Assembly (NCBI GenBank): GCA_963575645.1
Contig: OY754470.1
Location: forward strand, 25,526,501-25,590,500
DNA from: Xanthostigma xanthostigma
Lineage: Eukaryota > Arthropoda > Insecta > Raphidioptera > Raphidiidae
Direction of reading: 5' to 3'
Length of the DNA: 64,000 nucleotides
Part shown: one piece after another, positions 12,059-46,704 of the stretch
Numbering within the stretch: position 1 is the first letter of the stretch
How the letters are laid out: each line of letters opens with the position of its first letter
Notes under the pieces: model-generated
What the model saw: the letters and a program-made list of their open reading frames with translations, nothing else
Told to the model about the DNA's origin: nothing
The model's database searches: none
Program-made: the position numbers and the translations under genes

Positions 12059-12076
12059 TGGCGCCCAACGTGGGGC
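12059..12076 (+). promoter_or_regulatory. Primer-binding site, tRNA-Lys type
   Basis: TGGCGCCCAACGTGGGGC lies five bases after the LTR. It is complementary to the 3' end of tRNA-Lys with anticodon CUU including CCA, the primer class also used by several retroviruses. This marks the minus-strand DNA start. Confidence 0.92.
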
Positions 12077-13736: not shown

Positions 13737-16700
13737 GCCACCGCTTTCCTTCTTTAAAACAGGCCTACACGCTGGATCGTGACTCACCATCGTGGAAATC
13801 GTGGTTGAAAACGGTTTCTAATTTTTGCGCTAAGCCCGTGTTTCCTGCTAATCTTAATCCTCTAATTGTGACTAAGCCTCGTGATAATCGCCCTTATATA
13901 ACGGTTGATATTTTCGGTAATAAGTTAGTTGCCTTGCTAGACTCGGGTGCTAGTGACTCGGTGTTGGGTAAAAATGGCCTACGGTTTATCAAAGCCTTCG
14001 GATTGGAAATAAATAAATGTGAGGATAAGTCAATTCGTACAGCGGATGGGGTTGCTCAAAGTATCATTGGTTATGTGTTACTGCCTGTTTCCGTTGGATC
14101 CTTAGTTCGGTTGGTAAGAGTGCTGGTTGTGCCCTCTCTATGCCACAGTTTGATTTTTGGCAGCGATTTCTGTCGAATTTTTAATCTGGTAATTGATTTT
14201 GGTGCAAATACTTATCTGGTTGGTGATCGAAATATTTGTGTCCTAGAAAAATCATCTGCTACACTTGCGGAGTCAGACGATTTGGTAGGAGTCATTACTA
14301 GTCATGTAGACCTAAGTGACACTCAACGTCAACAATTATCGGATGTCATTCAGCGATTCGACGAGTTATCCTGGGTTAATGGAACCAAGCTGGGAAGAAC
14401 TGATAAAATTACGCATTGCATAGATACGAGTGACGCACGTCCTATCAAACAGAGACAGTACCAATTATCCCCTTATATGCTATCTCATTTATACAATGAA
14501 TTGGACGAAATGTTGAAGTTGGGGGTCATACAACGATCATCGAGTCCGTGGTCTTCGCCGGTCCTGCTTGTCAAGAAAGCCCAAGGTGCCTACAGACTAT
14601 GCTTCGATGGACGAAAGTTAAATTCTGTTACCAAGAAAGACGCCTACCCTCTCCCGAGAGTAGATCACATTTTGAGCAAATTAGCAGGTGCCCGTTATCT
14701 GTCGAGCATTGATCTTAAGAGCGCTTTTTGGCAAATTCCGCTTGACGCCAATTCACGAGAGAAGACGGCTTTCAGTGTGCCAGGCAAAGGGTTATATGAA
14801 TTTGTTGTCATGCCCTTTGGTTTAAATAATGCTCCGCAGACTCAGCAGCGCCTTATGGATAGGGTACTGGGACCTGAATTGGACCCCTATGTGTTCGTGT
14901 ACTTGGACGACATAATCGTTGCTACTCCGTCATTTGAAAAGCATGTGGAAGTTTTAATGGAGGTTTACAGAAGATTATCGGCTGCTAAGCTGACTATTAA
15001 TGCTGATAAATGCAGGTTTTGTTTTCCCTCGTTGAAGTACCTTGGTTTTGTAGTGGATGAACATGGTTTACGAACAAACCCGGAAAAGATTGCAGCAATG
15101 GTCAACTATCCTCGACCAGAAAACACCACTCAAGTTAAGCGATTTATAGGCATTTGTTCTTGGTATCGCCGCTTTATACCAAATTTCTCAACTTTAACGG
15201 CACCAATTACCTCATTGATCAAGGGTCGTAAAAAGGGTCACCGTATTGCCTGGAATACAGAAGCCGAGAATGCATTTATTGACATCAAGCAGGCACTGGT
15301 TTCTGCGCCGATACTTGCCAGCCCGAACTTCCAAAGAACTTTTACGGTTCAATGTGATGCGTCAAATGTTGGTCTCGGATGTGTCCTCACGCAGAAAAAT
15401 GATGATGATATTGAAGTCCCGATTGCTTATGCTAGCCGTACTCTGTCGTCGTCGGAAAGAAACTTTACTGTTACGGAGAAGGAATGTTTGGCTGTGCTGT
15501 TTGCCATTGAAAAGTTTCGTCCGTATATTGAAGGTGTTAAGTTCCGTATAATCACTGATCATCATTCCCTACTGTGGCTTCACAATCTCAAGGACCCTGT
15601 TGGACGTTTAGCTAGGTGGGCTGTGAAGATGCAGCAATACGATTTTGAATTAGAGCATCGAAAAGGTTCCTTGAATGTTGTTCCGGATGCGTTGTCGCGA
15701 GCCCCTCTTGAGATGTGCCTTATTCAACTTAATGACGAATGCATTGCAGGTGATCGTTGGTACCAAAATATGCTTAGAATACTTGAAGCTCATCGGGCTG
15801 CTTTTCCGAACTGGGATATTGTGGATGGTCACCTATATAAATTCGTCCCATCTGAAGTTGGTCCCCGTAATAATACCGATTGGAAGTTAGTGGTTCCAGC
15901 TCGTCAGCGAAGAAGTGTGATTCGATCCTGTCACGATGACCCTATGGCTGCTCATTTGGGTATTTTTAAAACCACTAATCGAGTTTGTGAGTTGTATTAT
16001 TGGCCGAAGATGCGTCGAGAAATTAAACGCTATGTGCAACAATGCAGGGTCTGTGCTGCGCAGAAAATGGCTTCCACTGCTCGTCCCGGGTTTATGGGCC
16101 GACAAAAACGCGTGTCTCATCCATGGCAGTTGATTGCCGCCGATATTATTGGCCCTTTGCCTAAATCGGGGAATGGTTCCTCGTACTTACTGGTAGTAAC
16201 GGATTGGTTCACAAAATTCACCTTGTTAAAACCATTACGTCAAGCTAATGGTGTTGCTATCGCGAAGTTTTTGGAAGAAAATGTTTTTCTCCTATTTGGT
16301 GTGCCACAGATTCTTATGTGTGATAATGGCACCGAATTCATTAACAAGCGAATGAAGGAACTTGTCCAGGAATACGGAGTACAGCTTTGGCCTAATGCAA
16401 GATATCACGCTCAGGTGAATTATGTGGAACGCTACAATCGGACGATTGGCGCTGCTGTCAGATCATTTTTGGAGGACTTGGACCATAGACACTGGGATAA
16501 ACAAGTACAGAAAATAGCTTTTGGTTTGAGAACTGCTGTGAGTGAAGCAACTGGTTTCTCGCCGACATTTTTAAACTTTGGTCGGTTCGTTCCCTCTTCT
16601 GGAAATTATTACAGTCGTTTAAAAAACGTGGATGAGATGGATTTGGATGCTGTTCGGGAATTTCATGTCAAGGAAATGGAAGAAATGCCGGAACTGTACA

Positions 16701-17008
16701 AGGAGGTACAACGAAAATTGACAGCGGCCTATGAGAGGAATGCTGCGATGTATAATCGAGGAAAACGAGATGCTGACGTATACCATGTTGGCGAAAAGGT
16801 GTGGAAGCGTCACCATGTGATGTCAAGTGGTGCAAAACATGTGGCAGCAAAGCTAGCCCCTAAGTACACTCTCGCTACAGTTAAAAATGTTGTTTCACCT
16901 TTAGTTTACGAACTAGCCGATGAAAATGGTGTCAGCCTTGGTCGCTGGCATGTTAAGGACTTGAAACCCTACCAGGCAGCCTCTACAAGCGACTCCGAGT
17001 CCGAATGA
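13655..17008 (+). CDS. pol: Pol polyprotein: protease, RT, RNase H, integrase
   Basis: Expressed by -1 frameshift from gag at 13709-13715; the frame opens at 13637 and its first ATG is 13655. Numbering from that ATG: aspartic protease with LLDSGAS (Asp96); reverse transcriptase with YLDD at 416-419; RNase H with QCDAS (Asp568) and a later DHHSLLWL; integrase zinc finger with His760, His768 and a C-x2-C pair; integrase core with Asp830, Asp890 and Glu925; and a C-terminal module ending in GRWHVKDLKPY. The spacing Asp890-Glu925 leaves 34 residues, with HAQVNYVER in place of the common HPQxNGxVER, probably a lineage trait. Uninterrupted over 1117 codons. It copies element RNA to DNA and integrates it. 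No envelope gene follows. Confidence 0.95.
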   Translation: MFRLWKAGLCSAILSKMSGKRRRRKRIGHRFPSLKQAYTLDRDSPSWKSWLKTVSNFCAKPVFPANLNPLIVTKPRDNRPYITVDIFGNKLVALLDSGASDSVLGKNGLRFIKAFGLEINKCEDKSIRTADGVAQSIIGYVLLPVSVGSLVRLVRVLVVPSLCHSLIFGSDFCRIFNLVIDFGANTYLVGDRNICVLEKSSATLAESDDLVGVITSHVDLSDTQRQQLSDVIQRFDELSWVNGTKLGRTDKITHCIDTSDARPIKQRQYQLSPYMLSHLYNELDEMLKLGVIQRSSSPWSSPVLLVKKAQGAYRLCFDGRKLNSVTKKDAYPLPRVDHILSKLAGARYLSSIDLKSAFWQIPLDANSREKTAFSVPGKGLYEFVVMPFGLNNAPQTQQRLMDRVLGPELDPYVFVYLDDIIVATPSFEKHVEVLMEVYRRLSAAKLTINADKCRFCFPSLKYLGFVVDEHGLRTNPEKIAAMVNYPRPENTTQVKRFIGICSWYRRFIPNFSTLTAPITSLIKGRKKGHRIAWNTEAENAFIDIKQALVSAPILASPNFQRTFTVQCDASNVGLGCVLTQKNDDDIEVPIAYASRTLSSSERNFTVTEKECLAVLFAIEKFRPYIEGVKFRIITDHHSLLWLHNLKDPVGRLARWAVKMQQYDFELEHRKGSLNVVPDALSRAPLEMCLIQLNDECIAGDRWYQNMLRILEAHRAAFPNWDIVDGHLYKFVPSEVGPRNNTDWKLVVPARQRRSVIRSCHDDPMAAHLGIFKTTNRVCELYYWPKMRREIKRYVQQCRVCAAQKMASTARPGFMGRQKRVSHPWQLIAADIIGPLPKSGNGSSYLLVVTDWFTKFTLLKPLRQANGVAIAKFLEENVFLLFGVPQILMCDNGTEFINKRMKELVQEYGVQLWPNARYHAQVNYVERYNRTIGAAVRSFLEDLDHRHWDKQVQKIAFGLRTAVSEATGFSPTFLNFGRFVPSSGNYYSRLKNVDEMDLDAVREFHVKEMEEMPELYKEVQRKLTAAYERNAAMYNRGKRDADVYHVGEKVWKRHHVMSSGAKHVAAKLAPKYTLATVKNVVSPLVYELADENGVSLGRWHVKDLKPYQAASTSDSESE
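13709..13752 (+). promoter_or_regulatory. -1 ribosomal frameshift signal: slippery site plus stem-loop
   Basis: GGGAAAC at 13709-13715 lies in the gag frame as G-GGA-AAC, the canonical X-XXY-YYZ pattern used by several retroviruses. Slippage by -1 joins gag to the pol frame, which is closed upstream by a TAA at 13634-13636. Three bases later a stem can form: gaagga (13719-13724) with tccttc (13747-13752), and aagcg (13727-13731) with cgctt (13742-13746), with a two-base bulge and a 10-base loop. The spacer is shorter than the usual 5-9 bases, so the lowest pairs may be open in the ribosome. Confidence 0.8.
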
Positions 17009-17129
17009 TAAAGCGCATTGAAGTTCTTCGTCCTCTGTAGGAATTGTCAATATTATGGAGTCGTCTTCCCCGTAGTGCCTTCTCAAAAATGCTCAGGTTT
17101 TCGCATTTTTTATCCAGGGAGAGGGGGAG
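17009..17129 (+). promoter_or_regulatory. Short 3' untranslated segment and polypurine tract
   Basis: About 105 bases after the pol stop lead to the purine run AGGGAGAGGGGGAG at 17116-17129, directly abutting the 3' LTR. This is the plus-strand DNA primer. No envelope or accessory frame fits between pol and the LTR. Confidence 0.88.
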
Positions 17130-18221
17130 TGTAACGGTTTACAATTGGTGGCCCCCGAAAAAAAATAGATCGAGCCTATGATATACAAAAAAGTCAAAAT
17201 CTTGCTTTTAATACCGTTACAGTGTATGATGGACGAGCGCCTGACGACAGAGCAGATCAGGTTTGAAAACGTAATACGCGGAATGAAATGAGTGCGACTG
17301 AGAAGGCCAGTCGACTGTGATGCGTGCAAGTGAGCTCGTCGTTGTTAGATTCTGTCGCGATCTGGTCTGGAGGGCGGACAGAATCGGTTGGCGATACAGC
17401 TAGGAGAGGACGGCGAGCCGTGACAGCGGCCACATGTATGCGAGATACGCGATTTTTTTGAGATGAGAAAATGATGTTTTGTGGATGATTGTGTTGGAAT
17501 GGAACGTTTTTGGTTGGATTTTTAATATTTTGGCGCTTGTTTTGGAGTGTTGAATTTTGGATAGGTCGTTTTTGGATTGACGATTTGTCTATTTTGGATT
17601 TGAGATTGGATTTTTTTTGGTTGTCGGATTTTGCTGGAGTTTGGATTCGCTGTTTGTTGTTTTTTTGACTTCTTGGCTCTTTTTAAAAAAAAAAATCGTA
17701 ATAATTATTAAAAAGACCTCACGGTGCTGCCAGTGGCGGGCCTGTCTTTTGGCGTGGTTGACACCGCTGATTTTAATGTGTTACCTGTGTGTTCTAGAAA
17801 TTGAATTGTCAGTCTTGTAGTTGGATTAAGTTATGGGGTATTTTCTTAGATGATTCAATTTTGTGTTTTGTCTGAAATTTGGTTTTATGGTTAATTGGTT
17901 GGAAAGGATTTCTAGAATCTTTTTCTCGCACACAATCTTGGACCGTTTGTGTTGCCTCGTATGGTCTTTTTGTCCTGGCGCCCTTTTCTGACATCAGTCG
18001 GTACGACACATACGATATTAAATATTCTTGAGATTGAAAATAGATTCCTTGTTTTTTATATAAAATATTTTGAAAATACTAAAAAACGGTTTTGATTGTG
18101 TTTGTCTTTATTTGTCGAGTGGTAGGTGGTAGGATTTTATTTCAGGCATTTGCCTGTGTCAATTTTGAGTGTTTTTTTATTAGTTGAAATTTTTTAAGCC
18201 CTTTTAAGCACGTTTGCCCAA

Positions 18222-18257
<36 letters not shown>

Positions 18258-18311
18258 GGAACCCACGACCTTTGCGCCGCTGAGCTTAGCTAGCCTGGAC
18301 TTTTCGTCATA
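17130..18311 (+). repeat. 3' LTR, 1182 bp
   Basis: Base-for-base repeat of 10871-12053 except for one fewer A in the A run. Short open frames here are identical to those of the 5' LTR and are not genes. GTAT follows at 18312-18315, completing the target duplication. Confidence 0.93.
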
Positions 18312-23103: not shown

Positions 23104-23364
23104 TTTATACAACATATACGCGCCACGAATCTAAAATAACTACTACTTTAAAGCAGGAAAGCGACAAGTGACAAAGGCTACGAACGATCACGGCCAATCA
23201 CCGACGAGCGCACGTTCCTTGCAGGTAGCTGGAAGGTGGTGGGAGTCTCAACGGCTCTAAAATGTACCTTTGCGACGCTGTTTGTGACTAACTTCCGAAT
23301 ATTTTAGATCCGCGGTGCGTATTATCCTCTTGCAAAATTTTTTTCCCGCCGATAGAACTCTAAA

Positions 23365-24476
23365 GGCCCCCATACACCTCGTTCTTTTCTGGCAGTTTTA
23401 ACCGCCGGGTAAAACTGTACGGTTAAACACGAACAACGGCCATCCCCATACACCTCGTTCTTTTATGGCAGTTTTAACCGCTCGGGTAAAACTGTTCGGT
23501 TAATTAAACACGAACAACGACCATATCCACACAGAGGCGTTGTTTCGTTCAGTTTTTCTGAAGTCGTGGCATCATTAATACGATCTGCTTTGATGGATCC
23601 TACGACAACGTTAGCAGTTGCAGCCGCAGTGGCTATAAAATTAAAATTTTCAAAAAGAAAACGTTCAAAATGGACTAAAGAATGGTTACTTAAACGCAGG
23701 CAATTTTCACACGTAAATCTTCTAAATGAATTACGACTAGAACCAGGAGATTGCTTTAATTTTCGATACAATTGTATGAATTGAACGAGCTGAAACTTGA
23801 ACCTGGGGATTGGTTCAATTACCTGAGAATGGACGAACATACTTATTTTGAGTTATTATTAACCGTTAGAATGCTATGCGGCGCAAAAGCGCTGCGATCG
23901 TTTGTATCGGCGCAGCGCAAAAGCGCTGCGAGTATTAGTTTCAGTGTGTTGAGAGCTATTTTTTTTAGATTTTTTATTTTCTAAAAGAAATAAAATACAA
24001 TAATATTGATATTATTTTATGTTTAATAAACATTAATAAACAATATAATGCAAAAATAATTAATAAAATTGATTGATATTTGTCTAAATTAGAGTGTTTT
24101 ATTTGACACCATTATTTTTTCCTCTAAATTAATCAATATGTTTATAGCAATTTTCATTTATTTTTGTCAAAATTGCTTAGCACTAAAACGGTTAAAATAT
24201 AAATCAATACTCAAACTAATTACAATCATTTAATTAATATGACTTATTTGCTGTACGTCGCACCACTGAATAAACACGTCGATTCTTATCGGAAAGCGCC
24301 ACACATTACGATTTAAAACGACAACCAGCAAACACGTCGTGTTTAAAATCAAGCTTCGGCAGATAAAAAAACTGCCGTGTTTCATCGACAGTTTTTGCCC
24401 ATACACTTCGGTTTTGACCGACGTGTTTTATCGTGACGATGAAAACTGCCAAAAAAGAACGAGGTGTATGGGGGCC
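23365..24476. mobile_element. PIF/Harbinger-like element, copy 1, with transposase 5' remnant
   Basis: Ends are inverted repeats GGCCCCCATACACCTCGTTC at left and the complement at right. A unit of about 80 bp is tandemly duplicated at the left end (from 23365 and from about 23444). The interior holds the N-terminal part of a Harbinger transposase (23593-23905), then AT-rich non-coding sequence. Copy 2 at 29881-30598 is the same element lacking the coding part. Confidence 0.7.
23593..23905 (+). pseudogene. N-terminal fragment of a Harbinger-type transposase
   Basis: From ATG a frame reads about 60 residues: an Ala-rich start, a Lys/Arg cluster, then WTKEWLLKRR and NELRLEPGD. The order Trp-x-x-x-x-x-Leu-x-x-Arg, a Leu-x-x-Glu-Leu segment, then Phe-x-x-Phe/Tyr-Leu-Arg-Met is the shape of HARBI1-like transposase N-termini. 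A duplication of about 60 bases has broken the frame: NELRLEPGD recurs as NELKLEPGD in the next frame, where it continues WFNYLRMDEHTYFELLL. No catalytic DDE region remains, so it cannot act as a transposase. It lies just after the left end of its element, where such genes begin. Confident for family, less so for exact boundaries. Confidence 0.6.
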
Positions 24477-24867
24477 ATAAGTTTCACCAAATTTGACTGT
24501 AATTCATTAAATGTTTAAGTTTGAAGTTTATTGAGGTTGCAAAATACCGTTAGATTTAAATCGCTAATAACTACGAGACTGATATTGCGTTGAAAATGGT
24601 TGAACCCACAAAGGACAGATCGTGTCTGTACGAGTTCGTCACGCAGAATTTGTTTTGTCTGTGACGTCATCGCATGAGTGTCGGCGCATGCGCGTGAAAC
24701 TCATCAATGAACCTTGCGTAAAGTTTTAAATTAATGTAGCGCGGAAACGCGTTTAGCTATAAGAGGTTGATTCGGGTGTCGTTGTGAAGAGCTCGCGGGA
24801 CACTACTAGGTCATAAAGTGAGACAGTTAAAATAGTCGCCGAAATTTTAGGTGAAAATCGGTTACTA
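24477..24867. other. No gene; locally CpG-containing
   Basis: A less AT-rich stretch around 24600-24800 with 'gacgtcatcgcatgag' and 'gcgcatgcgcgtg'. It could be a promoter remnant of a mobile element, but no TATA box or initiator with sensible spacing is convincing. Confidence 0.35.
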
Positions 24868-24938
24868 AATAATTAAATATTGGAAGATTAAAGGATGAAA
24901 CCTGCTGGCATAGGATCAATGAACTAAGCAAATACTGA

Positions 24939-26843
24939 AATTTTTTTTATTGCATTTTATTGTCTGACGTTTCGGCAAACTTTATGCCATCTTCGGAGAA
25001 GATGTTGTAAGAACTAAATAAAGTTCTTACTAGAAATAAATAAAACACAAGCTTGAACTTTAAAGATTCGTAATTGATGTTTTCTCAAGAGTCGTTAGTG
25101 ATCAATTAAATTTTTTCCAAATAATAACAACCTTCAATTTTCCAGCGTAGCTAAGGAAAAAATAATTTTGACAAAATAACAAAAAAGAGAAAGAGAATTA
25201 TTGTAACAAAGCTTGCTACATTAACACCCCCCCTACGCGTGGGAAAAATTGATATGGAATGAAAATTTTCCAAGCCAACTGCAAAAACCCACGCGCAGGA
25301 AACAAATAGAGATATATCGCATTATATTAAAAAAATCAAAATAGTGTACAAGTTAATAAAAAAATACACTAAAAAAAATTAATTGTCAATATTTGCAACT
25401 TTTAAACGATCACAAGAAACACTATCTTGACGACCATTAATGTCTAAAATAAAGTATTTATCACTTTTCGAAATAACACGAAAAGGTCCACTATATGATG
25501 GTTTTAAACTTGAAAAAGCGTTAATGTTTCGCACAAACACAAAATCTGCATTAATTAATGGATTTGTAAAGTTAGGAACATTTTTATCACAATAGAACTT
25601 CTTTAAACTTGTTTTTAAACGGTTAATGAAATCATTATTTGTAGAATTCAAAAGATTCCGTTCAAAAAATTCCGCAGGAAGTCTAAGAGAAGATCCGTAT
25701 AACATCTCAGCCGGACTAACGTTAACTTCTTTCTTTATGGAAGAACGAATAGACAACAAAGTCCATGGTAAAACATCAATCCAGTTTTGATGATCAGAAC
25801 ATTTCAAAGATTCTTTTAAACGTCTATGAAATCGTTCTACTAAACCATTAGCTTGAGGATGATATGCTGTTGTCATTATATGTTCAGTATCAATTTCTTC
25901 AAGAAAATGTTTCCACATAATTGACTGAAATTGCAGTCCTCGATCAGTAGTAATTTTTCCTGGACAACTAAAACGGGAAATCCAGTCAGAAATAAAAACT
26001 TTAATTATAGTTTCAGTTTGTATGTCTTTTAATGGTAAAGCTTCTGGCCAACGTGAAAAGCGATCAACAATGGTCAGAAGATACTTGAATCCATTACATA
26101 AAGGTAGAGACACAATATCCAAATGTATATGATCAAATCTGTTATCAAGTTCCTTAATAGGAAAAATTGGCAATTTCACATGCCTAGTTATCTTATTTTG
26201 TTGGCAATTTAAACAATGCCGTGTCCATTCTCTTACCTCTTTATTCATACCTGGCCAAAAAAATCTGCTAACCAATTGGTTTTGCGTCGCACGAATACCA
26301 GGATGACCTAGGTTATGAACAGAATCAAAAACACTTCGTCGAAAATTATCTGGTATATAAGGTCGAGGTTTCTTTGTTGAAAACTCACACCAAATCATTT
26401 TTCCATTACTTAATTGAAATTGTTTAAAATTGAATCTTGGTTTTGATATCAATTTTAAAAGTTCTTGATTGTTATTTTGTGCAGAAGAAATCTCATTGAA
26501 GTTTATTGAAATGCCATCTGGGCAATAAACTTGATTAATATGTTTAGAAATATTATTTATTCTTGAAAGTACATCAGCAGGGATGTTTTCTTTGCCTTTA
26601 ATATGACAAACATCAGATGTAAATTGTTGTATAAATAAGAGCTGTCTAAGTTCTCTTGGTAAATAATTGTCTGACTTAGATTTCAACGCCAAAGTAATTG
26701 GGCGATGATCAGTAAAAACTGTGAAATGACGACCTTCAATATAATGTCTGAACTTCAATTTTCCAGCGTAGCTAAGGAAAAAATAATTTTGACAAAATAA
26801 CAAAAAAGAGAAAGAGAATTAATGTAACAAAGCTTGCTACAAT
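24939..26843 (-). mobile_element. Deleted Ty3/gypsy element (different family from 10871-18311)
   Basis: On the minus strand: a partial 5' LTR (26843-26755, starting TGTAGCAAGC), a direct join into RNase H, then integrase, a G-rich polypurine tract near 25226-25235, and a 3' LTR from 25220 to about 24939. The first 88 bases of the two LTRs differ at one position. Primer site, gag, protease, RT and most of the 5' LTR are gone. The 3' LTR contains a CCGAAGA..GAAACG hammerhead-like core. Confidence 0.75.
25379..26803 (-). CDS. pol: Truncated gypsy Pol: RNase H end plus integrase
   Basis: 474 codons without a stop. The first 15 or so residues are translated from LTR sequence and are not genuine. 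From RHYIEGRHFTVFTDHRP it is the C-terminal half of RNase H. Then come the integrase zinc finger (HNLGHPGIRATQ with a C-x2-C pair), and the integrase core with HLDIV, TTDRG and YHPQANGLVERFHRRL carrying the Asp, Asp, Glu triad. A C-terminal SGPFRV segment (GPY/F module) follows. In a complete element this protein inserts the cDNA. Here protease and RT are missing because a deletion fused the 5' LTR to RNase H near 26752. The long frame without stops means the deletion is young, or that it has been by chance undisturbed. Expression is unlikely. Confidence 0.85.
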   Translation of the reverse strand: MLFCQNYFFLSYAGKLKFRHYIEGRHFTVFTDHRPITLALKSKSDNYLPRELRQLLFIQQFTSDVCHIKGKENIPADVLSRINNISKHINQVYCPDGISINFNEISSAQNNNQELLKLISKPRFNFKQFQLSNGKMIWCEFSTKKPRPYIPDNFRRSVFDSVHNLGHPGIRATQNQLVSRFFWPGMNKEVREWTRHCLNCQQNKITRHVKLPIFPIKELDNRFDHIHLDIVSLPLCNGFKYLLTIVDRFSRWPEALPLKDIQTETIIKVFISDWISRFSCPGKITTDRGLQFQSIMWKHFLEEIDTEHIMTTAYHPQANGLVERFHRRLKESLKCSDHQNWIDVLPWTLLSIRSSIKKEVNVSPAEMLYGSSLRLPAEFFERNLLNSTNNDFINRLKTSLKKFYCDKNVPNFTNPLINADFVFVRNINAFSSLKPSYSGPFRVISKSDKYFILDINGRQDSVSCDRLKVANIDN

Positions 26844-26907
26844 GTATTTGCTTAGTTCATTGATCCTATGCCACCAGGTTTCATCCTTTAATCTTCCAAT
26901 ATTTAAA

Positions 26908-27756
26908 CAGGATTATCATCACTCATTATTAGAGTTATTTTTCACAAAAATATGTCGCCTCATATAGAAAACGCAAAGTCAGTGAAAAGATCGCATCTAA
27001 AGGAATGCAATAAGCTTAAAAAGTCCAGTGCCGAGCGAAAGCGAGAGCTATAGCAGCGTTGAGAAGGAAACGAAAAATCCAAATGTCTACGTGTCATGTG
27101 CAGACGTCATTGGATTTGAAGGCGATACCAAACACTTGTTACGAGTTAATTCCGACGTTTTGACGAAAAATCTACGGCGCGGACCCTAATTTCGCCTTTA
27201 AGTTGTTTTTGTGTGCACATGATTATATTTTAATTTATGGGAATTTTGTTGTACGTGCAGAGAATTAGCGTTAGAGAAGCAAGGTTTAGCACATCCTTGC
27301 AGTAAGACAGGTATTATCAAGAACAGTTTCCTCTAGCCGGGCAGAATTGTAGCTGCTAGACTCCTACTTGCTACCGGAGTATGTTTTGGATAACGCGGCC
27401 CTCGCGATGAATATATCAAAAAGAAGAATTCCCCGACGACATTTTCAGAAACGTGTGTTTGCCATATTGCTACATACCCAGGAGTTTTGTGACATTCCTA
27501 TTTCATTTTATTTCACATACTCTGCAACTATTGCTTCTGTTTCTGAATAACAAACGAACATTTTCATATTATAGTTTTCTACTGTATCGTTCTTGCATTT
27601 TAATTTTACCCATAAGGGAATTAATTTATGCTCGGATACACTCTGTATGAAGTTTTCAGCTTCGATCTAAATAAAAATCGCGTATTCCCATATCAAAACT
27701 AAACGAATGAGGTGAGATTCGAACCCACGACAGCCTGATTATTATAACGATTAAAA
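26908..27756. other. No supportable gene
   Basis: A short broken frame near 26952-27050 is Lys/Arg/Ser rich and interrupted by stops; it may be a transposon relic, but I cannot place it. A minus-strand B-box-like GGGTTCGAATCTC lies near 27718-27730, without a cloverleaf. Confidence 0.4.
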
Positions 27757-27937
27757 TAAAAAATAAAGAATAGTTCTTCTTACCACACAGTTTTATTAGC
27801 GGATGTACATTTCGGGAGCTATGCTCTCATCTTCAGCAAACACTAAACTTAGTGTTTGCTGAAGATGAGAGGATAGCTCCCGAAATGTTCATCCGCTAAT
27901 AAAACTGTTGTGGTAAGAAGTAACCATTCTTTATTTT
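27757..27937. repeat. Palindrome with hammerhead-like core
   Basis: Two arms of about 90 bases meet at 'cactaaacttagtg' (about 27841-27854) with few mismatches. Each arm contains CTGAAGAT, a self-complementary GC segment, and CCGAAATG, the order of conserved boxes in hammerhead ribozymes. It is probably a pair of inverted terminal repeats from a Penelope-like or similar retroelement. Confidence 0.5.
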
Positions 27938-28011
27938 TTTATTTTTGTTTCATCCGCTAATAAAACTGTTGTGGTAAGAAGTAACCATTCTTTATTTTTT
28001 TATTTTTGTTT
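27890..28011. repeat. Exact 61-bp tandem duplication
   Basis: Unit starting 'catccgctaataaaactg' at 27890-27950 is repeated without visible change at 27951-28011. The first unit overlaps the right arm of the palindrome. Confidence 0.85.
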
Positions 28012-28753
28012 CAACAACAGTGCTCTTAATATTTGTATTATAACGATAATTCGCGAATTTTTTGACATTCGAATTCGCAAAATTCATGCGAATGTTAATA
28101 TCACAAAAAAATCATACTTTTTTGAAATGTAAAAATAATATTAAGAAATAAAAAATATTAATTTCGTAGCATTTTAACTAGAAAAAAAATTTTTTTTACT
28201 TCTTTTTTCTAAAATAACTTTAGTTTTTTCGCTAAGATAACCTTACAATTATATATTTTATCAGTCTTTACGTACTGACATAATAAAGCTTCAGATTTAG
28301 TATTGATAATCAACCTAGTATTCAGAACCACTTCAATTGTACGTGCGACTTGAGCGGCCAATCAGTTGTCAAATTTTAACCTTGGACAAATGACGCCAGA
28401 TTTGAAAACTTAATATTCGCATTCGTATACGCGAATATCGGTGTGATGTCTAAAAATTGACATTCAATACATTACAAATATATATAGGTATATATTGTGT
28501 AATATTAAAAAAAATATAAATAGTTACATACCACATTACGCGTGCTTTTAGATTAGTGATATCAAATGCTTACCTGAAACAAATAAATATAAATTAGTAT
28601 TGTAATAAAAATTGTATAAACTATCATAAAAATACATGATAAAAATTATGTTCATTTTATTACTAAAATCTTTATTAGAATACCATAGTAAGGTTATAAG
28701 TCTTTAAAGATTTCTTGGTCAACCTCAGATCTTACAAATGTTTGAGGCTTTAT
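28012..28753. other. No recognised feature
   Basis: Very AT-rich with runs of A and T. No gene, RNA or repeat recognised. Confidence 0.5.
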
Positions 28754-29334
28754 CAGAGCCGTTTTTAACCTATTGGAGGGCCTGGGCACATTAAGATAAT
28801 GGGTGCCCCTATGACATTGACAGAGTACTATTTTGTAAGAATAGACAAAAGGAGTAGCAATGTTCTAGATTTATTCTTATTTCTTTACCGTCACATAGAT
28901 AATATAGGTAATACAATTTCACAAAAGTAACTCTTTTAGCATTCACAGGTTAATGCTTAAAAATCCATATTGATTATAGATTTGAGATGAGCAAAATCAC
29001 TTCTTCAAAATCTATGTTTTCGAGCATATCACATTCTATGAACATCAGCGACAAACTGGTTAATCTCTTGAAGCATTGTATATTTGTATATTTAAATTTA
29101 CCTAAACATGCTGAAATCGGAAAACTTGATTTTCGGGCGAGAGTAGAGTAGCTTCGCGCATGCAAAAGCTAATAAGCAATTAGGTATTGTAGTCAATCAC
29201 TATCGTTTGATTTTTCGAAATACCTGTTTTTCGGTAATAAATATCGATTATCGTTTGGTGATCTGGCGGGAACTAGGGTGCCCCTATCAATCGCGAGGTC
29301 CTGGGCACGTTCCCAGTGGGAAAAAGGGGCCTGA
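28754..29334. mobile_element. Probable degraded hAT element
   Basis: Starts CAGAGCCG and contains 'gggcctgggcac' and 'ggtgcccctat'. The right end repeats 'ggtgcccctat' and 'gtcctgggcac'. These GC-rich terminal words around an AT-rich body are common in hAT elements. Flanks gctttat and gttttat could be a degraded duplication. No transposase frame. Confidence 0.4.
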
Positions 29335-29336
29335 GT

Positions 29337-29536
29337 TTTATGTATGCAGCTAATTATAAATTTTTACACAATATACCTATACATCGTTTGAGTAAACTGC
29401 GAACTCAAATTCTAATACAAATCTTTGATTAACTTCTGAATACAACTCTTCAAATAAATAAAATTATCGACCGATTTATAATTTTATTATTTTTTGTCAA
29501 TATATAGTCTGAAAAAAATTGATTGATAATTATCAA
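29337..29536. repeat. Half copy of the 'ttatcgacc' palindromic repeat
   Basis: Contains 'tctttgattaac' and 'ttcaaataaataaaattatc', as at 56680-56863 and 60081-60297, followed by AT-rich sequence. Only one arm is recognisable. Confidence 0.45.
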
Positions 29537-29676
29537 TTTCATTATGCGTTGCCTACGTATGCATAAGGACGCAAAAATACCATAAATAAAATTATAATTT
29601 TATTTATTGAAATTCTAATAATTATAAGTGTCTTATTTTTGCGTCCTTATGCGTACGTAGGCAACGCATAATGAAA
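29537..29676. mobile_element. 140-bp MITE with 43-bp inverted repeats
   Basis: TTTCATTATGCGTTGCCTAC at left continues to 'ggacgcaaaaata' and is mirrored at 29634-29676 almost perfectly. The centre is AT-rich and itself partly palindromic. No coding capacity and no clear duplication. Confidence 0.65.
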
Positions 29677-29880
29677 TGATAGCTCGACAGCGTTAAGATC
29701 CTGTTTTCGTTTTAGGGCTTTTTGATCAATTAGATAGCGACCTAATTTCTTCGATTCATTTCGTTTCGTTTCCGTTCTTATTTTGTTGTTATCGGTTCTT
29801 TCGACTTGGGATTTCCTACTTCTTCTTCTGTACACAGGACGCACATATAATATATCTGCAACCACTTGTAACACTCTAAA

Positions 29881-30598
29881 GGCCCCCATACACCTCGTTC
29901 TTTTTTGGCAGTTTTAACCGCCGGGTAAAACTGTACGGTTAAACACGAACAACGGCCATCCCCATACACCTCGTTCTTTTATGGCAGTTTTAACCGCACG
30001 GGTAAAACTGTACGGTTAATTTAAACACGAACAACGGCCATATCCACACAGAGGCGTAGTTTCGTTCAGTTTTTCTGAAGTCGTGGCATCATTAATATGA
30101 TCTGCTTTGATGGAAAATACAATAATATTGATATTATTTTATGTTTAATAAACATTAATAAACAATATAATGCAAAAATAATTAATAAAATTGATTGATA
30201 TTTGTCTAAATTAGAGTGTTTTATTTGACACCATTATTTTTTCCTCTAAATTAATCAATATGTTTATAGAAATTTTCATTTATTTTTGTCAAAATTGCTT
30301 AGCACTAAAACGGTTAAAATATAAATCAATACTCAAACTAATTACAATCATTTAATTAATATGACTTATTTGCTGTACGTCGCACCACTGAATAAACACG
30401 TCGATTCTTATCGGAAAGCGCCACACATTACGATTTAAAACGACAACCAGCAAACACGTCGTGTTTAAAATCAAGATTCGGCAGATAAAAAAACTGCCGT
30501 GTTTCATCGACAGTTTTTGCCCATACACTTCGGTTTTGACCGACGTGTTTTATCGTGACGATGAAAACTGCCAAAAAAAAACGAGGTGTATGGGGGCC
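29881..30598. mobile_element. PIF/Harbinger-like MITE, copy 2 (coding part deleted)
   Basis: Same ends, same left tandem duplication and same right 470 bases as 23365-24476, but sequence corresponding to roughly 23597-23990 is missing. The junction is near 'ttgatggaaaatac' at about 30110. This shows a MITE arising by internal deletion of a transposase-bearing relative. Confidence 0.75.
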
Positions 30599-37260: not shown

Positions 37261-39781
37261 TTATTTGATTAGAGAATCTTGCAAATTAACTAAAGCACAT
37301 ACTATTGTTACTATGTCATCAAGTATTTTTACATAGTTCAAATTAATACATGTATGTGGTTTTAACATATAAAATTCACGTAAGCGCCGAATAACTCTCT
37401 CTATGTGTATTCTTAAGCTTGCTATCTGTTTAGTTAACTTAGCTTCTTGTTTACTCATTTTCACTCCTGTTGCGACACTTGGAGGTCGTACTAGCGTAAC
37501 ACCTGACTTTCGCAGATACTGTTCTACATGTTTGAATCCTCTATCCGCCATAACACACATACCGCTTTTTAATGTCTGTACAAAATCACAGGATTCAACT
37601 AAACAGGTGTCAGTTATTCTTCCTCCAAATCCTGGAGAAATATAATTCACCAATCCACTTGGAGTAGAGGATATCAGATACTTTATTGTGTTGGATTTCT
37701 TATACTCTGACCATGTCAGAGCTTGATGGACTGCCTTAGATGGCTTTTGGACCTCAATTTCTAGACAGTCGATAATACAACTGACATTATGATAATTATG
37801 CCTGAATGACATAGGTAAAGTCCTTTTAATCATTTCTCTGTCTAGTGTTACAATAAAAGGACGCATAACACTGGCTATTAAAGGTATATTTTTCTGAAAT
37901 ATCTTGCTTATATACGATGGAGAGATTCCATAATCGTCTGCCAGTTGATTAAATTTATTATCCAATCTTATTTTATTCAAACAGAGCAATAAATGATGCT
38001 TGGGAATCTTTATTTCATCTACTATTAAGTCAATCAAGTAATAACAACTGTTTGGAACACCGATGTACAATCGAGGCTTCTTCTCTATTTTATTAATTGT
38101 ATTCACTAAACTCTTTGTTGCTTCTATTTTTCTGTCTTCTTCAATTAATTCACTACAGTCAGAAGATGATTTCATTTCTAACGACTTTACTGATGGTGAG
38201 TGGATGCTGGTGGCTGCAGATGGTATGTATAAAGAAATATCACTGTCGGAGTGCCCATCTTCAGTAATTATTTTTCTTGTAACTTTGCTTTGGCCGGATA
38301 CAAAAGGTCTTGACTTTAGAAGGGTAGCTTTGCATGGAGATGTGGAACAAGATATTAATGTTGGTTTCAAGGGTGATAATGCCTGGTTTATGGTTTTGAT
38401 TGTGGTCTGGACAGCTTTACTTCTAAATTTATGTGTTATAAATGCTTGAATGGATTTGTCTGCTGTCTGCTTACATAGAATTTCTTGCACATTTTCTCTA
38501 ACTGTATCGAAACCTGAAAAATAAACGGTATGAAATAGCTTAAAAATTGTAATAACTAGTTGTCATTTAAAACCTGAAACTATTTGTGTTCTTTGGTGCA
38601 TACTAAAGCTGTAACAGTAACGAGAAATTGTGTACCCGTATGCATTCGCTAGTAAAATAATCAGTATCCGTTACTTTCGTATCGTTACGTTCCTCGGTAG
38701 TTTTCATACGACATACAAATGACCGATTTATGCAACCAAATAAGCAATTATGTAATTGTAACAGTGTATTTAAGTAAGATATTTTAAAAACGCATCAGTC
38801 TGTATCTCCAAGCCTATAAAAGTAGTTCTCATTTTTCTAATTAATAAATATAATTTACTAAAATAAATTATCACTTGAATTATTCCAAGAACCTTTACAA
38901 CACGTTAGGTTAACCGTTCGATGCATTGTATTCGTTCGTATAACCACATCAAACGGATCGAATTGACATCGATATGACAAATGCGAGTAGCGAAATGAAT
39001 TTGTGAGTAACGTTTCGTTACTTCAAGTCAGACGATGTACCCGTTACTCGGTAGCGAGTACATACGGTTTGCTACAGCTCTAGTGCATACCTAAATTTGT
39101 ATCGGAAGTGACTTCAAGAGAAGAACTTTGTGCACAGTTTTCTTCTGATTCATTCAAACACTCTGCGATTACCATCATCTTTTGTTTTTTGCGAAAATAT
39201 GGTCGTTCTGTGCTGCTGCACGTCCGTTTTCTTCTGTCCTCTTGACATTCAAATTTACTTGGTGTACAACCGGGTTTTAAGCGAATTCGAGAGACTTTTC
39301 CCTTGATATGATACTCCATGTAATTAACCATATCATTTGGCAGCTATAACAAGAAAAATTAAGAGTGTTTATCACAGTAAATTTAACCCGACAATAATAT
39401 ATTAAGTACACATCGATCAAATATAGTTAAGATCTTGTCCAAGGTCTTGTTCAAAATCTAACCTATAAACTGTCAACGCATCACGTCATAAACGTTTCAA
39501 GTCAGATATTATTTTATTTTCATCAGTATTTTATAATTAAAACACAGTTTATGGAAAATTACCTTAGACTGAAAACAAATACTTACATCAAAATGATCTT
39601 CACAAAAATACATCCTTGAATCCGTAGATAAACTACAAGCATCATTCCTTCTTGCAAGTGTTAGCCACTTTTTCCGTATTTGTTTATTGTTCGGAACGTA
39701 TATAAATAATTTGTTTGGTGTTTTAATAGTTGTGCTGTTGCACTGGGGCACTATACAGTATTTGTAATAAGACACATTCAT
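37261..39781 (-). CDS. THAP-DDE transposase, three exons, apparently intact
   Basis: Minus strand: exon 1 39781-39587 (ATG, donor GTAAGT), exon 2 39343-39091 (acceptor AG, donor GTATGC), exon 3 38513-37261. Lengths 195, 253 and 1253 join in phase to 566 codons plus a stop. Exon 1 is a THAP zinc finger: YCIVPQC at the start, KKW in the middle and CEDHFD at the splice, which then reads LPNDM in exon 2 as in THAP proteins. Exon 3 holds a DDE_Tnp_4-type nuclease with IIDCLEIEVQ (Asp), GFGGRITD, VMADRGF (Asp) and RIHIERVIRRLREFY (Glu). This fits ISL2EU/IS4EU-type transposons. It would bind and cut element ends in the nucleus. All catalytic positions are present and no stop occurs. Introns contain nothing else notable. 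Confidence 0.82.
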
Positions 39782-40015
39782 TTTTAATTAAGCACAACAC
39801 TACTGCCGATTTGACACACAAATCAAACGGGGTGACGTCATTCAAGGCGCCATGACAGTCTGTAGCGTTTTCGAGATAAATTCAAATTTGATTTTGAAAA
39901 CGCAAAATACATCATGTAAATGTTTGATTTTTTGAAAAATATATATTTTTTGGGGTAAAATAGATAATAAGGAAGAGTATTAAGCACTTTTTCAAAAATT
40001 GTCAAGTAGCCTAAT

Positions 40016-41906: not shown

Positions 41907-42681
41907 ATTACAAAAGAAATTTAGCTCTCCTACTATTTGTTTACAAACCTACATAATTTATGTCTATTTGAGGAGAATAAATGAATATCTACCATTTATA
42001 AATAATTAGCAATCCAATTAATATTGGCACATAATTGGAAAAATATACACGAATCTTTTAAAGTATTGCAATGTATTAAAAAATAAATGGAAAACTGAAA
42101 CATTTTATCTAAGCAAAAAATAAATTACGTACGTACAAATAAACGAAGATAATTACCAATTTCCAATAGTAAAAAGAATTTCATTCAAACCACTTAAAAG
42201 AAAATGCGACAAATTACTTCTCCCTCGTTTCAAATAAAAATATATATAAATTTAATTACAGTGAACGCCACTGTAAAAAAAGGTGGCAAATACGAAGAAT
42301 AGCTTATATTCTCGCTTTGAGTTTCCGTCTTGTCTGTTCCCTTATTGTAAAGGCAAGTTCACAATATCTTAATGTTCCGTTAAATTTTAAACGATCACAG
42401 TTTACTTACTATTCTGAAATTTTACTATTTATTTTTGAATCAAACTGAAAGCTATGTGAGATTAAAAACATGATACCGACTACTGTATTTGATTTTACGA
42501 GCTATTTGTTATAATAATTTGTTAAAGCTGTTTCTTCGATGTTTTTGATGTGAAACTATATTTGGATGGGAGTAAAAACGTGCAATGCTGTGACACGGTT
42601 CATGATACGCGTTACGTTTAATTTAGTTCCTAGATAATATAAATAAGAATGATACATACCTAATGTAGTAATAATAATATA
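41907..42681. other. No recognised feature
   Basis: AT-rich with no supportable gene or repeat. Confidence 0.5.
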
Positions 42682-42772
42682 TTACAGAGTAACTACTGTT
42701 TGCTACAATTGTTAAGAAACACCCATTGTTACAACGCTATCAACATAGAAAAATTAGTTTAATTTACAAACA

Positions 42773-42848
42773 ATGTCATCGTCGGGATACGAACCCCGAA
42801 TCTTTCCACTATCACGGCGGACTGAGTTACATTACACCACAGTGACAC
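42773..42848 (-). other. tRNA-like sequence, left arm
   Basis: Mirror image of 43242-43317 with few changes; the seven-base anticodon-like loop reads CGTGATA. See the right-arm entry for the fold. Confidence 0.45.
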
Positions 42849-43241
42849 AACTATCATTCTAATATTTATAGCATTGGTAACTGATTTTTTCACGTCATGC
42901 GAGAGCCAATTATATTAGTTAACGCTAGATGTGAACCATCACAGTAGTGAGAGCTATGAGTGAATCAAAGGTGAAATTGTTTCCTTATATTAAATACGAA
43001 CCCAATCGTTTCAATCCAAAAGAAACATGAAGTTTCCACATTAACGGCCTGACGATATAAAAAAGACGTCTGTGACTTGGGTTCGTATTTAATATAAAGA
43101 AACAATTTCACCTTTGATTCACTCATAGCTCTCACTACTGTGATGGTTCACATCTAGCGTTAACTAATATAATTGGCTCTCGCATGACGTGAAAAAATCA
43201 GTTACCAATGCTATAAATATTAGAATGATAGTTTGATAGTT

Positions 43242-43317
43242 GTGTCACTGTGGTGTAATGTAACTCAGTCCGCCGCGATAGTGGAAAGATTCGGGGTTCG
43301 TATCCCGACGGTGACAT
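43242..43317 (+). other. tRNA-like sequence, right arm
   Basis: 76 bases. A seven-base acceptor-like stem (gtgtcac with gtgacat, one G-T pair), a five-base stem tccgc/gtgga with a seven-base loop CGCGATA, and a T-arm-like tcggg/cccga with GTTCGTAT. A-box-like TGGTGTAATG and a B-box-like GGTTCGTATCC are present. It departs from a true tRNA: no U at position 33, a weak D arm, an eight-base T loop and two extra bases before the 3' acceptor strand. It is probably tRNA-derived, as in SINE heads, and could still recruit RNA polymerase III. Confidence 0.5.
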
Positions 43318-43406
43318 TGTAAATTAAACTAATTTTTCTGTATGTTGATAGCGTTGTAACAATGGGTGTTTCTTAACAATTGTAGCAAACAGTAGTTACT
43401 CTGTAA

Positions 43407-44082
43407 AATATAAATAAGGTTGGGAATCGCTGATCTAGACGGTGTTAAAAATGTTCTACACTTTAAATCGGTTTCAAAATAATATTGTCCAAAATTAAAG
43501 ATACCGACAGTAAATGTTGTTATCTTCTGCGGTGTAAAGTCGTTGTAACCGAAGACTTAGGATAGAGAATGAAGAACACTATGATGGTAAGAACGAGAGA
43601 CTACGGCGTATCTCTTGCTTTGCCTACGAGACGAGAAGTCCCTCGCGATGGAAGAGATAAGACGCGTTCCTCCCGGACATTCCCTGTTATGTTTATGACT
43701 GAGTACCTCTGTCCCTATGTCCCTGTCTACACACATACATACCTACAAAAGAAGGGTATATTCACTCAGGCAACCATAGTTCTTAATACAATTAAATAAT
43801 TAAACAAATGCCCCAGTCTTTTAATGCACTTCTCGTCGTCAACTTTCTTTGTTCGCTTCTAAAATAAATGCAAATTACGGAACAAATTAAAAGTACTATA
43901 ATAACTGTAAAAGAAGAATACGTTGCCTATGCGTAAGTACTAATTGGGTACAAAAGTAACCAAACACAAATTTCTTGATAATTTTTTAATTTGAGAAATA
44001 AGAAGCCGTTGGGTGTATTAGGACACAGCAAATGCGGCCCTTGAGGGAAACACGACCAGCAGTATGATAAATATATAGAATA
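43407..44082. other. No recognised gene
   Basis: Includes a 76-codon frame at 43569-43799 without motifs. No supportable feature. Confidence 0.45.
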
Positions 44083-44921
44083 TCTATATAAATAAAAATG
44101 TATCGTTCTAGACCACGACAACAACAACAATGGAAAGCAGGTAAAAACCCGACCTTCTTGGAATTGCCTCGAGAATGCAATGCATGTACCGAAAGGTTGA
44201 GATGCTTCTAGAACATTCGACAGGTGAGGGACGAAGCTATAAAATGCGAGCGGAGTGGTTGGCAAGTCAGTCAGTTGTCCGTGTTGTTCATGTGTTGATA
44301 CAAGTGCTCTGGCGTTGCGACATAAATTATTCAGTTATACTGTGAAGATAAATAAACTTTGATGTGTGTAAACCATTGAGTGCAATTATATAAATCAGGT
44401 TTTACATTAATAACTTTTTGTAAATAATCGTGTGAATATAGTTAATAGACAAGTGTGAATAAGTATACTATATAAACTTTGTTGTGTTTGTGTGTTGTAA
44501 ATATTTTGTGTACATAATTTAGTGACTCTATAGTAAGTAAGTAAGTAAGTTTATTTGGTCATTAATTTAGATACATAGTATCTATATGACATATTCTCTG
44601 TTACTTAGTCTTTTATTATTATTTGGAACTGTCGTTATTTTGTTTCTGTTAACGTTATTATTACTGTTAAGTTAAAGAAGTAAACTTTCGTTTGTGTGTT
44701 TAACTGTTTTGTTAAACGTGTATTATTGTAAATAAATAATTTCCACCACGCATTAGAACAGTTTTGTTACAGTATTAATGCCTCGTTTGTAAAAATCGCA
44801 AATACTAAATATTTTACCGCAACAGTACCGCCATCTGTTGAATTACAGCGTCATCTGTTGGACATTAAAGCAACACGCAAACCAGACTGAGCCACAGCAA
44901 CGCGTGACCGGGTACAGCTAG
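44083..44921 (+). mobile_element. Non-autonomous Helitron carrying a heat-shock-type promoter
   Basis: Starts TCTATATAAATAAAAATG and ends GGGTACAGCTAG. It is flanked by A (44082) and T (44922), the Helitron insertion rule, and has no target duplication. The 3' end fits the CTRR rule; the hairpin just before it is weak. No Rep/helicase is encoded. The left third holds a heat-shock element, TATA box and initiator (44155-44276). 'gtaagtaagtaag' at 44535 is a short tetranucleotide repeat. Confidence 0.55.
44155..44276 (+). promoter_or_regulatory. Heat-shock-type core promoter inside the Helitron
   Basis: A perfect three-unit heat-shock element, TTCTAGAACATTC at 44206-44218 (TTC-nn-GAA-nn-TTC), with a looser TTC/GAA cluster at 44155-44175. 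TATAAAA lies at 44238-44244, and TCAGT initiators start at 44267 and 44271, about 30 bases after the TATA box. Order and spacing match insect Hsp70-type promoters, which bind the heat-shock factor trimer. The downstream A/T-rich sequence could be a former 5' leader. No Hsp coding sequence follows. Confidence 0.6.
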
Positions 44922-45600
44922 TATTGGATATTATGAATAAATATTCATAATAATAATAACACAAAATTGTAAACATTTTAACCAGTTCAAAATGTGAATT
45001 TATTTTTATCAATATTATGTAATTGATTGATAAGATCAGAGATCAAACCAGCGCGGCGATCTTCTCCGTACTATAAAGACCATTGACCATTACTCTATGG
45101 AGCTCACGACCGTTAGAAATTTCAGAAAGTATTTCTGGGTTTCATATTTTATTTGAAAAAATAAACTGAATTTCAAGTTTGCCAAGGTATTTTTCATTTA
45201 AATAAATTTAAAGTTACATAAAAAGCTATACGTGGTTCCATGGAAAGATATAACAATAATCGTTTAGCTTGACCTATAGCGCTTGAAAAACTGGTGATAA
45301 TAACGTTTAATACTATAATAAAACAATATCAAAGATCTGTGGACGATACGTGTTGAAAAATAAAAAAACAATGCGACCGGCGACGTAATATAAAATTTAA
45401 TGAAGGAAAACTCATATCTAGAAACGATTTTGTTAAATTGCGTTTTAATATCATAGATTCTTAACGTGTATCTATTTGATATTTTAGCAACGCAGCTTAC
45501 AACGTTTGGTGAATTCTTGCAATTTATTTTATTTATTGTAGGTTATGGACGCTTGTCAACCAACGTCTAACAACATCAAATTTAATTAAACGACATCACA
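44922..45600. other. No recognised feature
   Basis: AT-rich spacer without a gene or repeat that I can support. Confidence 0.5.
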
Positions 45601-45672: not shown

Positions 45673-45828
45673 TCAATTTACTATTATAAAAAAAAATTCC
45701 TGCCAATTGGGCGACGGGAACATTCCAACCCCATAAATATTGACATATAAAAAAATCTGATCTTGTGACGCGGGTAATGGCTGGTTTTAAATACGATATT
45801 TACTATTTCGTTGGCATGTTTCCCTATA

Positions 45829-46294
45829 CAGAGTGAGTTTTAAGTTGTTGCTTTTTTTTACAGCGTGTAAAAATCAAATAGACGAGCAAATATTTCAAAT
45901 AGTTTTTTAATCAAAACTCAAAAATAAGAGAGAAACAGCCTTTCGAAGTTTAAATAAATTTTATTAAATTTTCTTTAATTTTGAGGTCGGTCCTGAGGTT
46001 ATATTATGTCACTATGGAAATAAGTTGTTATTATCAAGTATGTGTATTGTTCTGTTTTTCAACTTCGAACAATATCTGTGAATACTTGATAATAATAACA
46101 TATTTCCATAGTGACATAATATAACCCCAGGACCGACCTCAAAATTAAAGAAAATTTAATAAAATTTATTTAAACTTCGAAAGGCTGTTTCTCTTTTATT
46201 TTTGAGTTTTGATAAAAAAACTATTTGAAATATTTGCTCGTCTATTTGATTTTTACACGCTGTAAAAAAAAGCATCAACTTAAAACTCACCCTG
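45829..46294. mobile_element. Foldback element, TA-flanked, about 210-bp arms
   Basis: Starts CAGAGTGAGTTTTAAGTTG and ends with its near-complement. Arms of about 210 bases are almost identical around a short loop (about 46040-46080). TA on both sides. The terminus CAGRGTGAG is shared with 18717-19447, suggesting related mobilising enzymes. Frames inside mirror each other and are not genes. Confidence 0.75.
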
Positions 46295-46704
46295 TATATA
46301 TTCCACGTCGTGTTATATATTTTTTTTTTACAAGAAAAACAAAATGCTATTTGGCATCTGTGGCCATTATCGCTACAAAAGTGACACATTGTATAAAAAA
46401 TACAAATTGGTTATAGGTAAGTATGATAGTATAGAATGGGTAGGTATATTACAGCAGGTATTTATATTTTGTTATATATATTTGTTATTTTCAAGTAATT
46501 TATTATTTTTAAGACGTTTTCTAATTTAAAATTAATCAAAGCGTGTTTAGCTAATTTCTTTCTGACAGATCTACAAAACGAAAGAACAGGTAGGTACTTC
46601 CGAAACTATAAAATGTAGAAAAAAATGTATTAACACTTTCTTGTAAAAATAAATAAATGAATACACCGTTATGAAACCTATACCATTATTATTATATCAT
46701 GTCT
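46295..46704. other. No recognised feature
   Basis: AT-rich. Short frames only. Confidence 0.45.

What the first reader, a model, noticed from the sequence alone, without database searches (positions are those of the whole stretch)
44083..44921. A Helitron that carries a complete heat-shock promoter
Helitron-type ends (TC start, CTAG end, A and T flanks) enclose a perfect three-unit heat-shock element, a TATA box and an initiator at correct spacing, but no heat-shock gene. Each copy of such a Helitron would place a stress-inducible promoter at a new site. Helitrons spreading heat-shock elements have been described in Caenorhabditis; an insect case with the whole core promoter would be a separate capture.
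Basis: partly seen in the sequence, partly recalled or inferred. Interest (0 to 1): 0.75.

Follow-up and report, generated by a model that had tools for sequence, protein, structure and literature searches.

The report
Heat-shock LTR inserted in a Helitron
The heat-shock promoter is not cargo that a Helitron picked up: it belongs to a very common repeat that looks like a solo LTR, which landed inside a small Helitron, and hundreds of copies of that repeat elsewhere in this genome carry the same heat-shock motif next to the same TATA-box context.

Summary
The motifs are real: TC start, CTAG end with A and T flanks, a perfect three-unit HSE, TATA box and initiator. In the window's own 623-Mb genome, 1 of 47 matches (the window itself) reaches the Helitron ends; the other 46 lie within positions 22-699. 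That inner part is a separate, abundant repeat of about 640 bp with TG...CA ends and identical 4-bp flanks in 18 of 27 units, laid out like a solo LTR. The window copy, lacking about 43 bp at its start, sits between two GTAT copies; joining the flanks gives a Helitron 5' end that aligns across the join with five held relatives. HSE plus LTR TATA context occurs 297 times genome-wide, control 0. Apart from the HSE, the LTR shows no convincing similarity to six Hsp70 upstream regions. Best reading: a nested insertion; the disperser of heat-shock motifs is an LTR-like family, comparable to ONSEN of plants. Heat induction is inferred; no full-length parent element was found.

The parts
44083..44103 (+). 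5' end of a small non-autonomous Helitron (starts TC, preceded by A)
   Evidence: with the insert left out, the join aligns (80-86% identity, 2-5 gap positions) with L044, L086, L088, L095, L106
44100..44103 (.). left GTAT, target-site duplication of the inserted LTR-like repeat
   Evidence: relatives have identical 4-bp flanks in 18 of 27 units
44105..44771 (+). LTR-like repeat (solo-LTR layout), lacking about its first 43 bp; 3' end ...GTTTTGTTACA intact
   Evidence: L005 unit positions 44-654 align to 44105-44771; mean identity 92.7% over ungapped columns to 27 relatives
44206..44218 (+). three-unit heat-shock element TTCTAGAACATTC, 63 to 51 nt before the predicted start
   Evidence: a perfect HSE in 22 of 28 aligned units including the window
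44238..44244 (+). TATA box TATAAAA
44267..44272 (+). initiator TCAGTC (predicted start at 44269)
   Evidence: transcription not tested
44351..44356 (+). AATAAA, 82 nt after the predicted start, where an LTR would end its R region
   Evidence: AATAAA 60-150 nt after TATA in 21 of 28 units
44533..44608 (.). about 76 bp of the window copy not matched by L027, with a GTAA tandem run
   Evidence: (L027 place matches query 23-450 and 527-696)
44772..44775 (.). right GTAT, target-site duplication
44776..44921 (+). rest of the Helitron, 3' end CTAG at 44918-44921, followed by T

Best explanation
A short non-autonomous Helitron (167 bp without the insert) was hit by a member of an abundant LTR-like repeat family, which integrated at GTAT, 17 bp inside the Helitron's 5' end, and duplicated those 4 bp. 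The copy later lost about its first 43 bp. Family copies with the intact layout carry one three-unit HSE, TATA box, initiator and a downstream AATAAA, like U3 and R of an LTR. Most likely the parent retroelement used the host's heat-shock factor to switch on its own transcription under stress; the solo LTRs left behind are potential stress-inducible promoters. Shown by sequence: nesting, copy number, motif layout, flanking duplications. Inferred: LTR identity (no full-length parent found), order and cause of the 43-bp loss, HSF binding, heat induction, any effect on neighbouring genes.
For: 1 of 47 matches reaches the Helitron ends; 46 end inside. Units have TG..CA ends and identical 4-bp flanks in 18 of 27 (10,000 shuffles: mean 7.7, maximum 15). 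GTAT lies on both sides of the window copy. The joined flanks align across the join with 5 of 104 held loci. The 3'-terminal 16-mer occurs 2212 times, control 1. HSE plus context occurs 297 times, control 0; the context alone 615 times, control 1. In 40 copies not chosen for the HSE, 8 have a perfect one within 800 nt (200 shuffles: mean 0.24, maximum 2). HSE core columns vary 2.4%, its spacers 11%, the rest of 44130-44269 6.2%.
Against: No full-length element was found: no primer-site string recurs clearly among 93 matches (control 59), and none of the 9 read of 19 purine-tract sites belongs to the family. 32 of 40 sampled copies lack a perfect HSE, and many align only over their 3' part. HSE conservation is modest: the mean over 44105-44531 is 4.7%, the core ranks 15 of 128 slid positions and the spacer-core difference 6 of 128. 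A genome search with 71 joined nt found only the window itself, and four held Helitron loci (L081, L089, L101, L105) match only the first 17-21 nt of the head, not the join. 9 of 27 units lack matching 4-bp flanks.
Confidence: 0.85

Rival explanations
1. One reading: a Helitron captured a host heat-shock promoter and spreads it.
For: Helitron ends are real and enclose HSE, TATA and initiator; one host Hsp70 upstream region (L120) has the same CTTCTAGAACATTCG, 15 of 15 nt.
Against: Only the window among 47 matches has both parts; the promoter repeat has its own ends and flanking duplications; beyond the HSE no convincing similarity to 6 Hsp70 upstream regions.
Confidence: 0.04
2. The 640-bp repeat is not an LTR but a non-autonomous DNA transposon with short TGT...ACA ends and 4-bp duplications (Ginger-like; this label is recalled).
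For: Thousands of 3' ends and no full-length LTR element found; among the first 100 listed of 615 context matches no same-strand pair lies 2-12 kb apart.
Against: TATA, initiator and AATAAA in LTR order and spacing; no long terminal inverted repeat seen by eye in the ends. Among the first 100 listed of 297 HSE matches three same-strand pairs lie 3.7, 4.1 and 11.95 kb apart, not read.
Confidence: 0.15
3. The nesting and LTR are right, but the HSE is inert and the LTR is not heat-inducible (a variant of the best explanation, not exclusive of it).
For: 32 of 40 sampled copies lack a perfect HSE; conservation beyond background is modest; one three-unit site only in the window copy.
Against: A perfect HSE is kept in 22 of 28 aligned units although spacer letters vary between them, and in 297 of 615 context matches.
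Confidence: 0.35

Closest known systems
ONSEN/COPIA78 and other heat-responsive COPIA LTRs of Brassicaceae (PMC3907296, abstract and outline; PMC5059998, passages)
   Same: HSF-type binding site in the LTR
   Different: Plant copia elements with full-length copies shown to be heat-induced; there none of the 16 A. thaliana ONSEN fragments or solo LTRs has a functional site, whereas here apparent solo copies keep a perfect HSE; induction here untested
HSE-bearing Helitrons of Caenorhabditis (PMC6927752, passages)
   Same: Transposons dispersing HSEs in an animal genome
   Different: There the HSEs are in the Helitrons; here the HSE is in a repeat inserted into a Helitron
TCN3 and TCN12 LTR retrotransposons of Cryptococcus with putative HSEs (PMC12810828, passages)
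   Same: Putative HSEs in LTRs
   Different: Fungal; full-length mobile copies known
Insect Helitrons with TC start and CTRR end (PMC6544945, passages)
   Same: TC start, CTRR end, short non-autonomous copies
   Different: No stable 3' hairpin predicted here; family not assigned

Membership tests
Helitron (outer part) | 5' TC and 3' CTRR, inserted between A and T | tested here: met
Helitron (outer part) | Other copies share the same 3' terminus | tested here: met
   58 matches from 40 scored of 871 candidates, many ending at or within a few nt of CTAG
Helitron (outer part) | 16-20 bp palindrome/hairpin near the 3' end | tested here: not met
   Fold of 44870-44921: -4.6 kcal/mol, z 0.32, 116 of 200 shuffles fold as well
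Helitron (outer part) | Rep/helicase protein | not tested
   This copy is too short to code for one; an autonomous partner was not sought
Solo LTR of an LTR retrotransposon (inner part) | TG...CA ends with a short target duplication | tested here: met
   Relatives: 18 of 27 units with identical 4-bp flanks. Window copy: GTAT on both sides, 3' end intact, 5' end deleted
Solo LTR of an LTR retrotransposon (inner part) | U3-R-U5 layout: TATA, start, AATAAA in order | tested here: met
   21 of 28 units have AATAAA 60-150 nt after TATA; the start is predicted only
Solo LTR of an LTR retrotransposon (inner part) | Full-length relatives with two such LTRs, primer site, purine tract and gag-pol | tested here: inconclusive
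   None found; candidate pairs could not be read
Captured host Hsp70 promoter | Homology to a host Hsp70 promoter and leader beyond the HSE | tested here: not met
   6 upstream regions (from 34 Hsp70 matches): best sense match is the 15-nt HSE, E = 0.009; the one lower E-value (7e-4) is a 42-nt antisense match at 76% outside the core promoters. Hsp90 and small Hsp genes not tested
Heat-responsive LTR (ONSEN-like) | Heat-induced, HSF-dependent transcription | not testable with these tools
   No expression data

The most novel reading that the evidence does not exclude
An animal LTR lineage evolved its own HSF-driven promoter and, as solo LTRs, has scattered at least 297 copies with a perfect HSE in the right place before the TATA box through one genome, far more than the host has Hsp70 genes, so that part of the species' heat response may be written by LTRs.
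Probability: 0.3. Interest if true: 0.7.

Novelty: new member of a known kind. Interest (0 to 1): 0.42.

Why it matters
It corrects the carrier: a seemingly complete heat-shock promoter inside Helitron ends is a nested insertion, a warning against reading cargo from ends alone. If intact copies are heat-inducible, this would be an animal parallel to ONSEN with hundreds of dispersed promoter-like copies, testable with one heat-shock RNA-seq or CAGE experiment.

Tried and rejected
Copies of the whole composite: none among those scored besides the window; no second copy of the repeat in the window. IMG/VR and phage collections: no match. Purine tract before the LTR start: 19 sites (control 6), 9 read, none the LTR; six of the nine share one other repeat's context. 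Primer site after the LTR end: 93 matches (control 59), read by eye; no primer-site string recurs clearly, though two flanks are alike (C8:23398779, C10:217112), both after ATAT as at a target site. One match that looked like a tRNA-Trp site (recalled) lies in a stretch without LTR similarity, Ig-like coding by my own reading, not searched; a search for more of it with up to 3 mismatches found only itself. Close same-strand pairs among the first 100 sites, read, have different 4-bp flanks and only partial LTR similarity, so I took them as separate insertions. Joined Helitron flanks searched in the genome: only the window. A comparison count for a neighbouring 13-mer did not complete.

Literature, listings only unless said otherwise: HSE plus Helitron (15 papers), Helitron/Lepidoptera/hsp70, Helitron/heat shock/promoter/insect (25 of 42 listed), the string GGTACAGCTAG (2 unrelated), LTR/HSE/insect (on rice), solo LTR/Lepidoptera/heat shock (none), HSF/LTR (15 of 19 listed), Drosophila/LTR/HSE/copia, heat shock elements/long terminal repeat/Drosophila. 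No title or abstract opening listed describes this case; the library is open-access papers only. PMC12810828 says that heat-shock-induced activation of transposons has been shown in plants and animals (passage); those animal papers were not seen.

Full report
The observation. The window shows A-TC at 44082-44084, CTAG-T at 44918-44922, one perfect three-unit HSE at 44206-44218, TATAAAA at 44238 and TCAGTC at 44267. A perfect HSE of this kind is expected 1.27 times in 64 kb by chance, so the motif alone proves little. The 3' end GGTACAGCTAGT occurs once in the window (mean 0.05 in shuffles).

Copies in the same genome. The 839-nt element searched against its own genome (623 Mb, 28 contigs; 40 of 4866 candidates scored) gave 47 matches. 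Only the window itself reaches the Helitron ends; the other 46 lie within positions 22-699. Reading 29 of these loci shows a unit that starts TGTTGCGYGC or close to it, upstream of where the window's homology begins, and ends ...GTTTTGTTACA. For 26 loci both ends were found (27 units, 615-665 bp; L004, L010 and L025 dropped). The 4-bp flanks are identical in 18 of 27, against a mean of 7.7 and a maximum of 15 in 10,000 shuffles; 24 of 27 left and 27 of 27 right flanks have TA in the middle. The 3'-terminal 16-mer occurs 2212 times genome-wide (control 1). I read 40 of the first 45 listed sites (5 already fetched were left out); 38 of 40 right flanks are NTAN. These are marks of integrase-type insertion, most simply solo LTRs.

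The nesting. In the window, GTAT stands left (44100-44103) and right (44772-44775) of the repeat, whose 3' end is intact and whose first 43 or so bases are missing. Joining 44083-44103 to 44776-44921 gives a 167-nt Helitron whose 5' end aligns across the join with L044, L086, L088, L095 and L106 (80-86% identity, 2-5 gap positions) among 104 held loci compared; four other loci match only the first 17-21 nt. Its 3' tail is shared by a Helitron family (58 matches from 40 scored of 871 candidates), in several members with a roughly 75-nt tail unit repeated in tandem. A genome search with 71 nt of the joined sequence returned only the window, so the empty form is supported by diverged relatives, not by a near-identical copy.

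The promoter belongs to the repeat. Of 28 aligned units (window included), 22 have a perfect HSE, and 21 have AATAAA 60-150 nt after the TATA box. HSE core columns vary 2.4%, its spacers 11%, the rest of 44130-44269 6.2%, and 44105-44531 as a whole 4.7%. Slid along 44130-44257 the core ranks 15 of 128 and the spacer-core difference 6 of 128: suggestive but modest, and these 28 were chosen by similarity. In the 40 sites chosen only by the 3' end, 8 have a perfect HSE within 800 nt (200 shuffles: mean 0.24, maximum 2); many of the rest align only over their 3' part, as other subfamilies or truncated copies would. Genome-wide, a 35-place pattern of HSE plus TATA context occurs 297 times (control 0), and the context alone 615 times (control 1), so at least 48% of context-intact copies keep this HSE. 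The pattern stops at CTAT, so the full TATA box and the initiator were not counted genome-wide.

Origin. The Hsp70 family search listed 34 matches; I read the upstream regions of six long open frames. Three have TTCTCGAACATTC, one of these three also TTCCAGAACGTTC, one other has TTCTAGAACATTC; two have no perfect site. The LTR shares the HSE with them (15 of 15 nt with L120, E = 0.009). The only lower E-value is a 42-nt antisense match at 76% to L118 (7e-4), outside the core promoter of either. TATA surroundings, initiator and leader gave no convincing match. I therefore read the LTR promoter as its own, not as a captured Hsp70 promoter; Hsp90 and small Hsp promoters were not tested.

What remains open. 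No full-length element was found by a purine-tract pattern, a primer-site pattern or the reading of close pairs. A non-autonomous DNA transposon remains possible. Heat induction was not testable. Of the window frames given to Pfam, only transposon-type domains were recognised, so no neighbouring host gene can be named. The species is unknown; that it is a lepidopteran-like insect is my recollection of Helitron ends, not a result.

Comparison. ONSEN (PMC3907296, abstract and outline; PMC5059998, passages) is the closest in mechanism; there, none of the 16 fragments or solo LTRs of A. thaliana ONSEN has a functional element, unlike the motif retention here. Caenorhabditis Helitrons carry HSEs themselves (PMC6927752, passages). 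Cryptococcus TCN3 and TCN12 LTRs carry putative HSEs (PMC12810828, passages). Hence a new member of a known kind, with many dispersed HSE-bearing copies.

Noticed in passing
window 10871-18311: Ty3/gypsy-type retrotransposon with long open gag and pol frames and a pair of identical 300-nt direct repeats, 10871-11170 and 17130-17429; looks young.
   Followed up: partly
window 23357-30413: Second element with direct repeats 92-100% alike about 6.1-6.5 kb apart and an integrase fragment at 25379-26818 on the minus strand.
   Followed up: no
window 37261-39787: DDE_Tnp_4 transposase frame and a nearby THAP-domain frame, both minus strand, as in PIF/Harbinger-like elements (label recalled).
   Followed up: no
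window 45825-46298 and 42672-43416: Large fold-back repeats (arms 217 nt, 97%; nested arms up to 157 nt, 99%) on both sides of the finding.
   Followed up: no
L049, L055, L059, L067, L073: Copies of the LTR-like repeat with a different start (TGTTACA... or similar) or U3; L049, L059 and L073 still carry perfect HSEs with other spacer letters, L055 and L067 do not.
   Followed up: partly
L117 and L118: Two Hsp70 genes on contig C5, about 10.6 Mb apart, have very similar promoters and leaders by eye, suggesting recent duplication or conversion.
   Followed up: no
L034 and L036: Several 3' ends of the LTR-like repeat lie in the same direction about 1.1 kb (L034) or 167 bp (L036) apart.
   Followed up: no
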